From Pseudomonas sp. HN11 (lineage in GTDB: Bacteria; Pseudomonadota; Gammaproteobacteria; Pseudomonadales; Pseudomonadaceae): DNA of 64,000 bases. Both the position numbers and the translations under genes were made by a program. Every line of letters begins with the position of its first letter. Positions within the stretch are counted from its first letter, which is position 1. Positions 50,099 to 53,545 of the stretch are shown piece after piece. A model generated the notes under the pieces. That model had not been told where the DNA came from. It ran no database searches and saw only the letters and a list, made by a program, of their open reading frames with translations. The stretch spans positions 1,375,001-1,439,000 of the forward strand of contig NZ_CP089985.1 of assembly GCF_021390155.1 (NCBI RefSeq), written 5' to 3'.

Positions 50099-51007
50099 AT
50101 GAGCGAAATGGATGACTTGGCCGCCTTCGCCGTGCTGATCGAAGCCGGCAGTTTTACCGTGGCGGCGGAGCAACTGGGCTGCAGCAAGGGGCAGTTGTCC
50201 AAGCGCATCAGCCAGTTGGAGGCACAGTATTCGGTGGTGTTGCTGCACCGCACCACACGCAAGTTGAGCCTTACCGCCGCCGGTGCGGCGTTGCTGCCCC
50301 AGGCTCAGGCCTTGGTGGCGCAGGTGGATCGTGCCCGCCAGGCATTGGCTCGGCTCAAGGATGACTTGGCTGGACCTGTGCGTATGACGGTGCCGGTGTC
50401 CCTTGGCGAGACGTTCTTCGACGGTTTGTTGCTGGAGTTTTCTAAACAGTACCCCCAGGTGCAGATCGAGTTGGAACTCAACAACAACTACCGCGATCTG
50501 GCGCGGGATGGTTTTGACCTGGGGGTGCGCTCAGGCACGATCGAGAACGAGCGCCTGGTGGCCAAGTCTCTGCTCGCCTGGCGTGAGATGACCTGCGCCA
50601 GTCCGGCATACCTTGAGAGACATGGCGAGCCGCAAACGCCGGCCGACCTGGCCACTCACATTTGCCTGCTCAACAGCCACTACAGCGGCCGTGAAGAATG
50701 GCTGTATCACCAACAGCACGAACTGCAGCGGGTGCGAGTCAGTGGCACTTTTGCGTCTAATCACTACAACCTGTTGAAAAAAGCCGCGTTGGTGGGCGCC
50801 GGTATTGCGCGCCTGCCGTCCTATGTTCTGCCCGCAGAATTGGCTGACGGCCGCTTACACTGGCTCCTGCGTGATTATCAGACGCGCAGCATGCCGATGT
50901 ACCTGGTACATCCCTACCAGGGCGGCCTGCCGCGTCGCACCCAAGTGTTGGCCGACTATCTGGTGGATTGGTTCAAGCGCAGCGGCGAGGTGTTGGACCG
51001 GCTTTAA
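50099..51007 (+). CDS. LysR-family transcriptional regulator
   Basis: A 302-residue regulator: N-terminal winged HTH at about residues 4-62 (LGCSKGQLSKRISQLEAQYSVVLLHRTTRKL) and a periplasmic-binding-like effector domain. ATG 50099 starts MSEMDDLAAFAVLIEAGSF, the family N-terminus. It is divergent from the SDR gene and its stop codon overlaps that of the convergent DoxX gene of the bufferin operon in a shared TTAA. It most likely regulates the SDR. Confidence 0.92.
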   Translation: MSEMDDLAAFAVLIEAGSFTVAAEQLGCSKGQLSKRISQLEAQYSVVLLHRTTRKLSLTAAGAALLPQAQALVAQVDRARQALARLKDDLAGPVRMTVPVSLGETFFDGLLLEFSKQYPQVQIELELNNNYRDLARDGFDLGVRSGTIENERLVAKSLLAWREMTCASPAYLERHGEPQTPADLATHICLLNSHYSGREEWLYHQQHELQRVRVSGTFASNHYNLLKKAALVGAGIARLPSYVLPAELADGRLHWLLRDYQTRSMPMYLVHPYQGGLPRRTQVLADYLVDWFKRSGEVLDRL

Positions 51008-51489
51008 GCATAGCGACGGGCGATCAGTTGATCGATGGACAGACGCCCCGGCCCTTTTGCTACGAGCAGCAACAGCAGCGCAATCCAGGTGCCATGGGTC
51101 GGGTAGGCGTCCGGGTAAACGAACAGTTGAATCACCAGGGTCATGCCGATCAGGGCTAGAGCCGAGAAGCGCGTAGCGAGCCCCACCAGGATCAGCACCG
51201 GGAAAAAGTGTTCGGCAAATGCGGCCATATGCGCCGCCACTTCCGGCGACAGCAACGGCACGTGGTACTCGCTGCGAAACAGCGGCAGCGTCGAGGCGGC
51301 CAGTTTTGGTTCGCCGATTTGGAAGGTGCCGCTGATCAAATCAATAGCGAAGCCTTCGACTTTGGTTTGCCCGGACTTCCAGAACACGGCGGCCACGGAA
51401 AAGCGTGCGAGAAAGGCGATCAGGCTGTAGGGGATTTGTGCGAAAAGCGCGATGACCCGTTTGATCAGGCAGGACGGAGGAGTGTTCAT
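51004..51489 (-). CDS. DoxX-family membrane protein of the bufferin operon
   Basis: A 161-residue DoxX protein with four hydrophobic segments (IPYSLIAFLARFSVAAVFWKSGQTK at the N-terminus; HFFPVLILVGLATRFSALALIGMTLVIQLF). It is the last gene of the minus-strand operon DUF2282-DUF692-DUF2063-DoxX, and its start overlaps the DUF2063 stop by ATGA. DoxX proteins are common in bufferin loci (BufD). Its stop codon shares bases with the stop of the convergent LysR gene. A role in the redox state or membrane handling of the peptide is inference. Confidence 0.85.
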   Translation of the reverse strand: MNTPPSCLIKRVIALFAQIPYSLIAFLARFSVAAVFWKSGQTKVEGFAIDLISGTFQIGEPKLAASTLPLFRSEYHVPLLSPEVAAHMAAFAEHFFPVLILVGLATRFSALALIGMTLVIQLFVYPDAYPTHGTWIALLLLLVAKGPGRLSIDQLIARRYA

Positions 51490-52262
51490 GGCGATACCTT
51501 TTGTGCTGGATGCAAATGAGTGATGACGTTGTGGCTGATCAGCAGCGTCAGGCATTGGTGCAAGTCGAACTCGGCTGACGCTTCAAGCGCCAGCTCCACG
51601 GCTTTTCCCAAGGGGGTGCCATGGGCCAGGCCGTCGATAAATGCGACTGAGCCATGGTCGATCGCAAAGACCTGGACCTCCAGGCCCTGACGCATGATCA
51701 GCGCACCCTGGGCGTACCAGGGATTCAACGTGGCCAAACCGCCCTCGGTCTGGTGCGCGGCCCAGATGGCCACCACCGCGTAGGCTGAATTCAAGGTGAC
51801 AAGGGAGGGATGCAGCTGCACGCGCAATTTTCCAAGGTCTGACTGGCCTTGTAGTGCTTGGAGAACCGTCTGCTGGTCCAGAGATCGGGTATCTGCTGCG
51901 TGATACGCACGCACGCGCAGGCGTTCCAGCCGCGCGACATCGGCCAGGTAGGGCACGCTGGCGGCAGGCTCGAAGTCCTGGATAAACGCCGCGAACGCAC
52001 TCCCGTACTCGCTGATCAACGGGCTGGCGGGTGGGCAAGCCTGAACGAACAGGCCAGCCATGGCGCGAAAGAATTCCTCGCCCACCAGTTGCAATGTCAC
52101 GGGGTAAGCCGTTGCCAGTGCGTTGATCAACGAGCTGTGCACATTGTTGCGATACACCACAAAGCGGCTGGCGGGGTCGGCGCCATTGCTGCTGAACAAG
52201 CCATCGGGGCAGGCCTGGTCCGGCGCCAATAATGCCTCGGCGAAATCGTCATGCAGGCTCAT
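51486..52262 (-). CDS. bufC: DUF2063 (BufC/HvfC-type) RiPP maturation partner
   Basis: A 258-residue protein of the DUF2063 family, starting [22 protein letters not shown]. It has the helical N-terminal domain ([32 protein letters not shown]), as in the partner subunits that pair with DUF692 enzymes for leader-peptide recognition. ATG 52262 overlaps the DUF692 stop in an ATGA, and the DoxX gene overlaps its end. It probably brings the DUF2282 precursor to the iron enzyme. Naming by operon context and family; no characterised homologue at hand. Confidence 0.86.
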
Positions 52263-53137
52263 GGGGCCACCCGCGACAGATGCCATTCGGCCTGTCGAGC
52301 CTCGGCCAGCAGTACGTCAAACGCCGGTACCTGGTTATCCCGCTCGATCAGTGTTGCCATCGGGCCCACCTGCGCCAGTACCTTTTCGTACAGCTGCCAC
52401 ACGGCGTGATCGATAGCGGCTCCATGATCATCAATCAGCAAACGATCACCGAGGCTGTCAGTGTCTTCGGCAAAACCGGCCAGATGCATCTCACCCACTG
52501 CGTGCAATGGCAACGCGTCGATGTAGGCAAGAGGGTCACGCTGATGGTTGATGCACGACACGTAGACGTTGTTTACATCCAGCAGCAAACCACAGCCGGT
52601 GCGGCGGATGACTTCGCTGATGAAGTCGGTCTCGTCCAGGGTTGAACGCTGGAATTGCAGGTAGGTAGACGGATTTTCCAGCAGCATCGGGCGTTTGAGG
52701 GTGCTTTGTACCTGGTCAACGTGTTCGCACACCCGTTGCAGGGTCGCACTGTCGTAGGCCAGGGGCAGCAGGTCATTGAGGAACACAGGGCCGTGGCTTG
52801 ACCAGGCCAGGTGTTCGGAAAAAGAGTGGGGTTGATAGCGTTCGATCAGCGTGGCCAACCGTGCCAGGTGCTCACGGTCCAGCGGGCCTTCGCCGCCGAT
52901 AGACAGGCCGACGCCGTGCAATGACAGCGGGTACTGTTCGCGGATCAACCCCAGGTAATGATGAAACGGGCCGCCGGCCACCATGTAGTTCTCGGCGTGC
53001 ACTTCAAAAAAACCGATGTCGGGTGAGGTCTCGAGCACTTCAATGAAGTGCTCACGCTTGAGCCCCAGCCCGGCCCGGCGTGGGAGGCCGGGCGCCTGAG
53101 CCTGGGAGATGGCTTGCAGGGATGAATGAGTCATCAT
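52259..53137 (-). CDS. bufB: DUF692 MNIO enzyme (BufB/HvfB-type) modifying the bufferin peptide
   Basis: A 292-residue TIM-barrel metalloenzyme of the DUF692 family (multinuclear non-heme iron oxidative enzymes, with MbnB of methanobactin synthesis the prototype). Conserved metal-binding regions are visible: [45 protein letters not shown] and [10 protein letters not shown]. Family members convert precursor cysteines to oxazolone/thioamide or thiooxazole groups. It overlaps bufC downstream and lies 23 bases after the precursor gene. Confidence 0.88.
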
Positions 53138-53160
53138 CAGTACTCAGGTTTTGCGCGGTT

Positions 53161-53457
53161 TCAGGACTTGGCGGTGAAGGCAGCTTCCTGGCCGAAACCG
53201 GTTGGCGAGGTGGAGCTAGGGGTTTTGAGACAGGTGCCGGCTGGGACCAGTTTCCAGGCGTTGGCTTGATCCTTGGTTTTCGAGGTGCCGGCGCAGGAAG
53301 TGCCGGCGCCAGCGGCGCAGTCGTTCTTGCCGGCTTCAGCCACGCCGAAGCATTTTTGCATGTCGTCGGCAGCGTGGGCGGTGCTGGTCAGGGCGCTCAG
53401 GCTCAGGGCGGAACCGAGGGCCAGGACGAGGGTGGCGGCGGACAGTTTGGTAGTCAT
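53161..53457 (-). CDS. bufA: DUF2282 bufferin precursor peptide (BufA1-like)
   Basis: A 98-residue exported precursor. The N-terminus ([29 protein letters not shown]) is a Sec signal peptide ending AHA at about residue 29. The mature part has four Cys (C36, C47, C55, C76), in [23 protein letters not shown] and PAGTCLK. These are the residues expected to be modified by the DUF692 enzyme, giving copper-binding groups. It is the first gene of the operon. A candidate ECF-type promoter lies about 80 bases upstream. Copper buffering is known for related Caulobacter peptides; here it is inference. Confidence 0.86.
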
Positions 53458-53485: not shown

Positions 53486-53545
53486 GCAGGTTTGAATGCC
53501 TGCTTGTACCACTAGAGAGGGTGGGTGGGAATTCGTTACAAGCCA
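53486..53545 (-). promoter_or_regulatory. Candidate promoter and leader hairpin of the bufferin operon
   Basis: On the minus strand the string TGTAACGAATTC (53531 region) resembles an ECF sigma -35 (GTAAC), with CTCTAG about 20 bases on. Downstream, GCAGG (53499-53503 on +) and CCTGC form a small hairpin (GCAGGCATTCAAACCTGC, 53486-53503) before the AGGAG-type site (GGAGATACACC) of bufA. No sigma-factor gene lies in the window. The assignment is visual and weak. Confidence 0.35.

What the first reader, a model, noticed from the sequence alone, without database searches (positions are those of the whole stretch)
51004..53457. Compact bufferin-type RiPP operon (bufA-bufB-bufC-DoxX)
A four-gene minus-strand unit with overlapping or near-touching ends carries an exported 98-residue DUF2282 precursor with four Cys, a DUF692 MNIO enzyme, its DUF2063 partner and a DoxX protein. 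Family knowledge: DUF692/DUF2063 pairs modify Cys of exported precursors; bufferins of Caulobacter bind copper. The inference is that this organism makes a modified, copper-binding secreted or periplasmic peptide. It is a member of a newly described class rather than an unknown one, but the peptide and its chemistry in Pseudomonas are open.
Basis: partly seen in the sequence, partly recalled or inferred. Interest (0 to 1): 0.75.

Follow-up and report, generated by a model that had tools for sequence, protein, structure and literature searches.

The report
Bufferin operon with shared stress promoter
A soil-type Pseudomonas carries genes for a small, chemically modified, probably copper-binding peptide of a known class, and comparison with relatives suggests that a distant, little-studied stress-response switch turns on this and a second such gene set together.

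Summary
Window 51004-53457 (-) is bufA-bufB-bufC-doxX, a Buf1-type (DUF2282) bufferin operon coupled by ATGA overlaps. The layout is already catalogued in P. fluorescens as 'Pep1' (PMC8719888). BufB passes NCBIfam's bufferin-maturase cut-off; modelled BufB and BufC match MNIO and MNIO-partner structures. In 80 of 80 named Pseudomonas loci the precursor keeps four Cys with identical spacing. By Buf1 precedent only C47 and C55 should be modified.

TGTAAC-N17-CTCTA lies 55 nt upstream of bufA. All 80 named loci have it (72 strict, 8 relaxed), both elements near-invariant, spacer diverged. The 6.27-Mb genome has two perfect copies: here and before a Buf2-type MNIO cluster. In three other Pseudomonas it precedes an ECF sigma gene. 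That sigma, with a zinc-finger anti-sigma, adjoins bufferin operons in two genomes (a diverged relative in a third) and occurs in 132 of 134 Pep1 genomes. Here it lies 3.2 Mb away. In three genomes lacking Pep1, the same promoter at the same site drives a Met-rich exported peptide. Likely a periplasmic Cu/oxidant-stress response; the sigma assignment is inferred.

The parts
53161..53457 (-). bufA: Buf1/DUF2282 precursor, 98 aa, Cys 36/47/55/76
   Evidence: ORF; PF10048 75.9 bits; Cys spacing 11-8-21 in 80 of 80 named loci
53371..53457 (-). presumed Sec signal peptide of BufA (residues 1-29, cut after AHA)
   Evidence: read by eye from the sequence; no signal-peptide program was run
52259..53137 (-). 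bufB: MNIO (DUF692) bufferin maturase, 292 aa
   Evidence: PF05114 353.7 bits; NF050167 387.6 bits over cut-off 310; AF2 model best PDB match 3bww, Foldseek E 4.5e-21; H74, H109, E154, D187, N190, H218, D236, H238, E265 invariant in 14 aligned MNIOs
51486..52262 (-). bufC: DUF2063 + RRE-type MNIO partner, 258 aa
   Evidence: PF09836 86.6 bits; AF2 model pLDDT 90.3, best matches TglI (8hci, 8hi7) and 3dee; ATGA overlap with bufB
51004..51489 (-). doxX: small membrane protein, 161 aa from the ATGA-coupled start
   Evidence: PF07681 54.9 bits; ATGA overlap with bufC
53513..53540 (-). ECF-type promoter element TGTAAC-N17-CTCTA
   Evidence: one match, 0 mismatches; 0.21 expected in the window at up to 1 mismatch; 80 of 80 named loci, 72 strict; one of two perfect matches in the genome
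53486..53503 (-). predicted 5'-leader hairpin just after the -10 element
   Evidence: 65 distinct leader sequences, mean fold z -2.03 against +0.14 for the next 34 nt; z of this window's own leader only -1.3; weak or absent in L106 (P. gingeri)

Best explanation
The locus is a Buf1-type bufferin operon. BufB, a multinuclear iron oxidase working with BufC, oxidises the two central cysteines (C47, C55) of BufA to thiooxazoles before export. The peptide is then exported by Sec, its outer cysteines pair as a disulfide, and it binds Cu(I)/Cu(II) in the periplasm; DoxX is an accessory inner-membrane protein. Transcription starts at TGTAAC-N17-CTCTA, which I propose is read by an ECF sigma factor encoded 3.2 Mb away (G000:C1:4598955-4599569, 204 aa) and held by a 77-aa zinc-finger anti-sigma encoded next to it. 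Thiol or metal stress would free the sigma and switch on this operon together with the Buf2-type cluster at 6.23 Mb. Shown here: gene content, folds, the conserved element, its placement, linkage of sigma to bufferins in a few other genomes, co-occurrence. Inferred from relatives: chemistry, export, copper binding. Inferred only: that this sigma reads this promoter, and the inducing signal.
For: Family and fold. Buf1 chemistry by precedent. Promoter: 80 of 80 named loci, pairwise identity 0.992 (-35) and 0.972 (-10) against 0.47 for the spacer; two perfect genome hits, both upstream of MNIO precursor genes. Same element 19-25 nt before the sigma gene in G007, G096, G089. Sigma and zinc-finger anti-sigma next to bufABC-doxX in G134 (where a Buf2 cluster follows them) and G200; a 39%-identical sigma adjacent in G250. 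Co-occurrence: 132 of 134 Pep1 genomes have the sigma, 46 of 164 others; one control ECF 72 of 134 and 22 of 164. Precedents, passages only: sigma-F in Caulobacter controls DUF2282/DUF692/DUF2063/DoxX genes; RpoE2 with a 67-aa anti-sigma controls a DoxX-COG3220-DUF2063 cluster under HOCl in H. influenzae.
Against: No biochemical or expression data in this organism. In this genome no sigma gene, the proposed one included, has the element upstream. G035 has Pep1 and the element but no close sigma, nor a match to the neighbouring KAS III gene. At 59 sigma loci with flanks of up to 1.5 kb, 0 had bufferin genes: linkage is the exception, and I found the three linked cases by eye in listed coordinates. 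The number of perfect matches (2) is not above the reversed-pattern control (3); the case rests on placement. Co-occurrence was not corrected for phylogeny; the control ECF also associates (odds ratio 7.5 against 169). 17 genomes have a perfect site but no sigma at E 1e-60. In C. metallidurans RpoQ control of gig was not shown; its deletion raised gig.
Confidence: 0.68

Rival explanations
1. The operon defends mainly against reactive chlorine or other oxidants, and copper binding is secondary: the thiooxazole peptide acts as a sacrificial periplasmic nucleophile, functionally exchangeable with a Met-rich peptide.
For: At the same livF-LysR site, under the same element, G007, G089 and G096 carry a Met-rich exported-type peptide instead of bufABC. 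The proposed sigma has an adjacent HxxxCxxC zf-HC2 protein, a thiol-sensing type (recalled). RpoE2 and HOCl in H. influenzae; a DUF692 RiPP iModulon expressed with NaOCl, and also on GlcNAc, in P. aeruginosa. In one genome (G196) the element precedes a DUF417 gene.
Against: The characterised Buf1 binds copper and aids growth under copper excess. Met-rich motifs also bind Cu(I) (recalled), so the swap fits copper too.
Confidence: 0.3
2. The element is a real promoter, but another ECF sigma of the genome reads it.
For: PF08281 gives 38 matches in the genome, ECF sigmas among them; -35 motifs containing AAC are common to many ECF groups (recalled). In this genome no sigma gene carries the element, so the genome itself does not single one out.
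Against: Of the element sites I inspected in other genomes the only sigma gene met was the proposed one, and only it was found beside bufferin operons.
Confidence: 0.2
3. The peptide is a secreted antimicrobial (bacteriocin-like) used against competitors.
For: Pep1 was the gene cluster that correlated most strongly with suppression of Streptomyces scabies in P. fluorescens, and antiSMASH called it a putative bacteriocin (PMC8719888 passages).
Against: No exporter, protease or immunity gene in the four-gene operon; Buf1 sequesters copper in the periplasm; correlation only.
Confidence: 0.06

Closest known systems
Buf1 bufferin operon of Caulobacter vibrioides (sigF-nrsF, DUF2282-DUF692-DUF2063-DoxX)
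   Same: Gene content and order of the four core genes; ECF-sigma-type promoter (sigma-F motif GTAACC-N16-CGAA, passages)
   Different: No sigma gene in this operon, no NrsF match in this genome; different -10; proposed anti-sigma is a 77-aa zf-HC2 protein. The two precursors were not aligned here
Pep1 cluster of P. fluorescens (PMC8719888)
   Same: Short DUF2282 peptide, DUF692, DUF2063, DoxX: the same layout in the same group of organisms (passages)
   Different: None seen in layout; the two passages seen describe neither promoter nor regulator
H. influenzae RpoE2/HrsE regulon with its DoxX-COG3767-COG3220-DUF2063 cluster
   Same: ECF sigma with a tiny cytoplasmic anti-sigma controlling a DoxX-MNIO-DUF2063 cluster encoded elsewhere (passages)
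   Different: Different precursor type and ECF group; sequences not compared here
gigPABT of Cupriavidus metallidurans with rpoQ-rsqA
   Same: DUF2063- and DoxX-related genes in a four-gene operon induced by copper and gold; ECF sigma gene beside it (passages); named a bufferin cluster in PMC12452194
   Different: Predicted membrane anti-sigma; control by RpoQ not shown there

Membership tests
Buf1 bufferin operon | DUF2282 precursor with four conserved Cys | tested here: met
Buf1 bufferin operon | Sec signal peptide on the precursor | tested here: inconclusive
   typical N-terminus ending AHA-AD read by eye; no predictor run
Buf1 bufferin operon | MNIO maturase of the BufB type | tested here: met
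   NF050167 387.6 bits over 310
Buf1 bufferin operon | Partner with DUF2063 and RRE-type domains | tested here: met
   PF09836; model matches TglI and 3dee over most of its length, TM 0.51-0.60
Buf1 bufferin operon | Thiooxazoles on the two central Cys | not testable with these tools
   needs mass spectrometry and NMR
Buf1 bufferin operon | Copper binding and growth benefit under copper excess | not testable with these tools
   reported for the Caulobacter Buf1
MNIO superfamily | TIM-barrel fold with conserved metal-binding His/Asp/Glu | tested here: met
   Foldseek to 3bww, TglH, MbnB; His/Asp/Glu shared with them where the alignments reach; invariants in 14 MNIOs. That these positions are the ligands is recalled
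Sigma-F/NrsF-controlled Buf1 cluster | NrsF anti-sigma | tested here: not met
   PF06532 0 of 1 genome; the control rings in Caulobacter
ECF sigma with zinc-finger (ZAS-like) anti-sigma | Sigma regions 2 and 4 plus adjacent zf-HC2 protein with HxxxCxxC | tested here: met
   a match to the small protein lies beside the sigma at 58 of 59 loci. Anti-sigma activity itself not testable
ECF293 (PA3285) | Assignment to the ECF293 group | not tested
   PA3285 = ECF293 per PMC8999054 (passage); orthology to P0001 recalled from the porin neighbourhood, no PA3285 sequence was compared. PMC3832394 (passage) calls PA3285 not associated with an anti-sigma
Methanobactin | MbnB-type MNIO over cut-off | tested here: not met
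   TIGR04159 46.1 vs 325

The most novel reading that the evidence does not exclude
An orphan Pseudomonas ECF sigma and its zinc-finger anti-sigma (probably the PA3285/ECF293 group) command a scattered regulon of exported soft-nucleophile peptides: Buf1, Buf2 and, in genomes without Pep1, a Met-rich peptide at the same chromosomal slot. Thiooxazole peptides and Met-rich peptides would then be interchangeable answers to one periplasmic signal, Cu(I) and/or reactive chlorine.
Probability: 0.45. Interest if true: 0.7.

Novelty: new member of a known kind. Interest (0 to 1): 0.5.

Why it matters
Bufferins are a very large RiPP family, and what induces them outside a few model species and what they protect against is largely open. 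If the sigma assignment holds, a sigma factor that the papers I saw list without a shown function gains a regulon, and one deletion plus two reporters would tell whether the signal is copper, oxidants or both. It also offers a testable alternative reason why Pep1 tracks with potato-scab suppression: stress fitness rather than antibiosis.

Tried and rejected
NrsF as the regulator: no match. A copy of the element at the third MNIO cluster (L005, Pep4-like): none; only chance-level matches at two mismatches. A wider regulon in this genome: a relaxed pattern gave one extra hit, inside a long open frame, so not counted. Linkage of the sigma to bufferins as a rule: rejected, 0 of 59 checked loci (the 30 best genus matches and 29 further loci from the order, some cut short by contig ends); the three linked cases were noticed by eye in the listed coordinates, and others may exist. 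A scan for the element upstream of 30 sigma-type loci of this genome read every locus on the plus strand and so was valid for only about half; I rely instead on the whole-genome pattern searches. Assembly gap as the cause of the G035 exception: the neighbouring KAS III gene is also unmatched (without a positive control), which fits loss or a gap and decides nothing. CueR/CopR boxes were not tested with a motif model. Co-occurrence was not tested on a species tree, and only one control ECF was run (at E 1e-50, the sigma at 1e-60). Hairpin covariation was judged by folding statistics, not by pair counting. A first literature search matched 'buffering' and was useless.
Full report
OBSERVATION. 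ATGA overlaps couple bufB-bufC and bufC-doxX. The Pfam hits are over the curated cut-offs. NCBIfam names BufB an MNIO bufferin maturase over its cut-off; BufA, BufC and DoxX reach only related models below cut-off. Matches to BufB at E up to 1e-3 exist in 250 of 298 sampled Pseudomonas genomes, but these include other MNIO types; 134 of 298 have a close relative (best E below 1e-100), here called Pep1-like (list typed into).

FOLDS. An AlphaFold2 model of BufC (28-sequence alignment, pLDDT 90.3) matches the MNIO partner TglI and NGO1945 (3dee) over most of its length; PMC12452194 describes NGO1945 as DUF2063 plus RRE-type domain (section read). BufB (pLDDT 84.3) matches 3bww, TglH and MbnB. 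Candidate metal-binding residues are shared with those proteins where the alignments reach and invariant in 14 aligned Pseudomonas MNIOs; that they are the ligands is recalled. The precursor has Cys at 36, 47, 55 and 76, and the spacing 11-8-21 is identical in 80 of 80 named loci. By Buf1 precedent the two central Cys are modified and the outer two form a disulfide (section 14 of PMC12452194).

GENOME. The genome holds three MNIO loci. L004 carries a 6-Cys Buf2-like precursor (no Pfam match) with MNIO, DUF2063-like, methyltransferase (CFA-synthase-like) and cardiolipin-synthase-like genes (the last three named by eye), beside a P-type ATPase gene: the Pep2 layout. L005 carries a Buf1 precursor and DoxX, a hydrolase, a Buf2-like precursor, MNIO and a DUF2063-like gene (by eye): the Pep4 layout. 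PMC8719888 lists Pep1, Pep2 and Pep4 with these contents and reports that Pep1 correlated most strongly with S. scabies suppression (two passages seen).

PROMOTER. Alignment of 68 upstream regions showed a strongly conserved block. In all 80 named loci, 200-560 nt upstream of bufB, lies TGTAA[C/T]-N17-CTC[T/A]A, strict TGTAAC-N17-CTCTA in 72 of 80. Over 81 sequences the mean pairwise identity is 0.992 for the -35 element, 0.972 for the -10 element and 0.47 for the 17-nt spacer: elements constrained, spacer free, spacing fixed, as for an ECF promoter. The genome has two perfect matches: this one, 55 nt upstream of bufA, and one upstream of the Buf2-like gene of L004. The reversed control pattern gives three matches, so the argument is placement, not number. 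The third MNIO locus lacks the element. In the genus, 166 of 298 genomes have at least one match. The tool returned 30 loci, which hold 31 sites: 12 precede a Buf1 precursor by motif and 3 more (L161, L165, L168) do so by their distance (about 410-425 nt) to the bufB coordinates; 9 precede Buf2 precursors, 1 an MNIO gene, 1 a radical-SAM gene, 1 a Met-rich peptide; 4 are unassigned. The many other sites were not classified, apart from those read.

SIGMA FACTOR. In G007, G096 and G089 the element ends 19-25 nt upstream of an ECF sigma gene. The relative in this genome, 81% identical to the G007 protein, is at G000:C1:4598955-4599569, 3.17 Mb from bufA along the contig, and is followed by an overlapping gene for a 77-aa zf-HC2 protein with an HxxxCxxC motif. 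In G134 one array reads element, bufA, bufB, bufC, doxX, sigma, zinc-finger protein, element (18-nt spacer), Buf2 precursor, MNIO, DUF2063-like; in G200 the sigma and zinc-finger protein follow doxX; in G250 a 39%-identical sigma lies divergently beside bufABC-doxX with its own relaxed element. Across 298 genomes 132 of 134 Pep1-like genomes have the sigma (E up to 1e-60) and 46 of 164 others do; one control ECF of the same genome (E up to 1e-50) is found in 72 of 134 and 22 of 164, which shows the phylogenetic background. The exceptions are G250 (diverged sigma present) and G035 (none close). Against the idea: at 59 sigma loci with flanks of up to 1.5 kb none has bufferin genes; in this genome no sigma gene has the element upstream; 17 genomes have a perfect site without the sigma.

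SWAP. In G007, G089 and G096, none with a Pep1-like BufB, the site between livF and LysR/SDR holds the same element followed by a Met-rich exported-type peptide (flanks of all three confirmed by tblastn). G089 has a distant BufB match elsewhere; G007 and G096 have none. In the 80 named Pep1 loci LysR lies downstream on the other strand in 78 of 80, and livF upstream in 64 of the 76 with enough flank.

MECHANISM. Best reading: an ECF-sigma-controlled Buf1 operon whose product buffers copper, possibly oxidants, in the periplasm. Precedents, all from passages: sigma-F in Caulobacter controls two DUF2282/DUF692/DUF2063 clusters and a YedY gene under chromium (PMC3511200); RpoE2 with a 67-aa anti-sigma controls msrAB and a DoxX-COG3220-DUF2063 cluster after HOCl in H. 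influenzae (PMC7907618); a DUF692 RiPP iModulon of P. aeruginosa rises with NaOCl and on GlcNAc (PMC9023270). Copper and gold induce gig in C. metallidurans, but its control by RpoQ was not shown and rpoQ deletion raised gig (PMC10304878).

NOVELTY. Operon: known kind, already catalogued. Regulator link: not found in the open-access library in searches; most subscription papers are not held, and the original bufferin paper did not appear in the listing. PA3285 is given as ECF293 and predicted to be regulated by PvdS (PMC8999054 passage), and elsewhere as having no assigned function or associated anti-sigma (PMC3832394 passage); its identity with the sigma described here is recalled from the porin neighbourhood, not tested.

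Noticed in passing
L179, L193, L276 (livF-LysR site in G007, G089, G096): A Met-rich exported-type peptide stands in place of bufABC-doxX under the same promoter element; no Pfam match for the one tested, L193.
   Followed up: partly
window 53486-53503 and leaders of L036-L115: A predicted hairpin directly after the -10 element, with alternative pairings (GCAGGC/GCCTGC, GCAAGC/GCTTGC); mean z -2.03 over 65 leaders, control +0.14.
   Followed up: partly
L178 (G137:C1:2544000-2554000): An HD-domain-like gene (by eye) sits between a Buf2 precursor and its MNIO, and a second copy of the promoter element precedes the MNIO.
   Followed up: no
L189, L162/L187: The element lies upstream of a radical-SAM gene (ArsS-like by eye) in G137 and G082.
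   Followed up: no
L190 (G196:C1:3373500-3376500): The element lies 34 nt upstream of a DUF417 membrane-protein gene, a family that includes RclC (recalled).
   Followed up: partly
L005 8557-8829 and 7073-7345: One cluster with both a Buf1 and a Buf2-like precursor but a single MNIO/DUF2063-like pair: which enzyme matures the Buf1 peptide is unclear.
   Followed up: no
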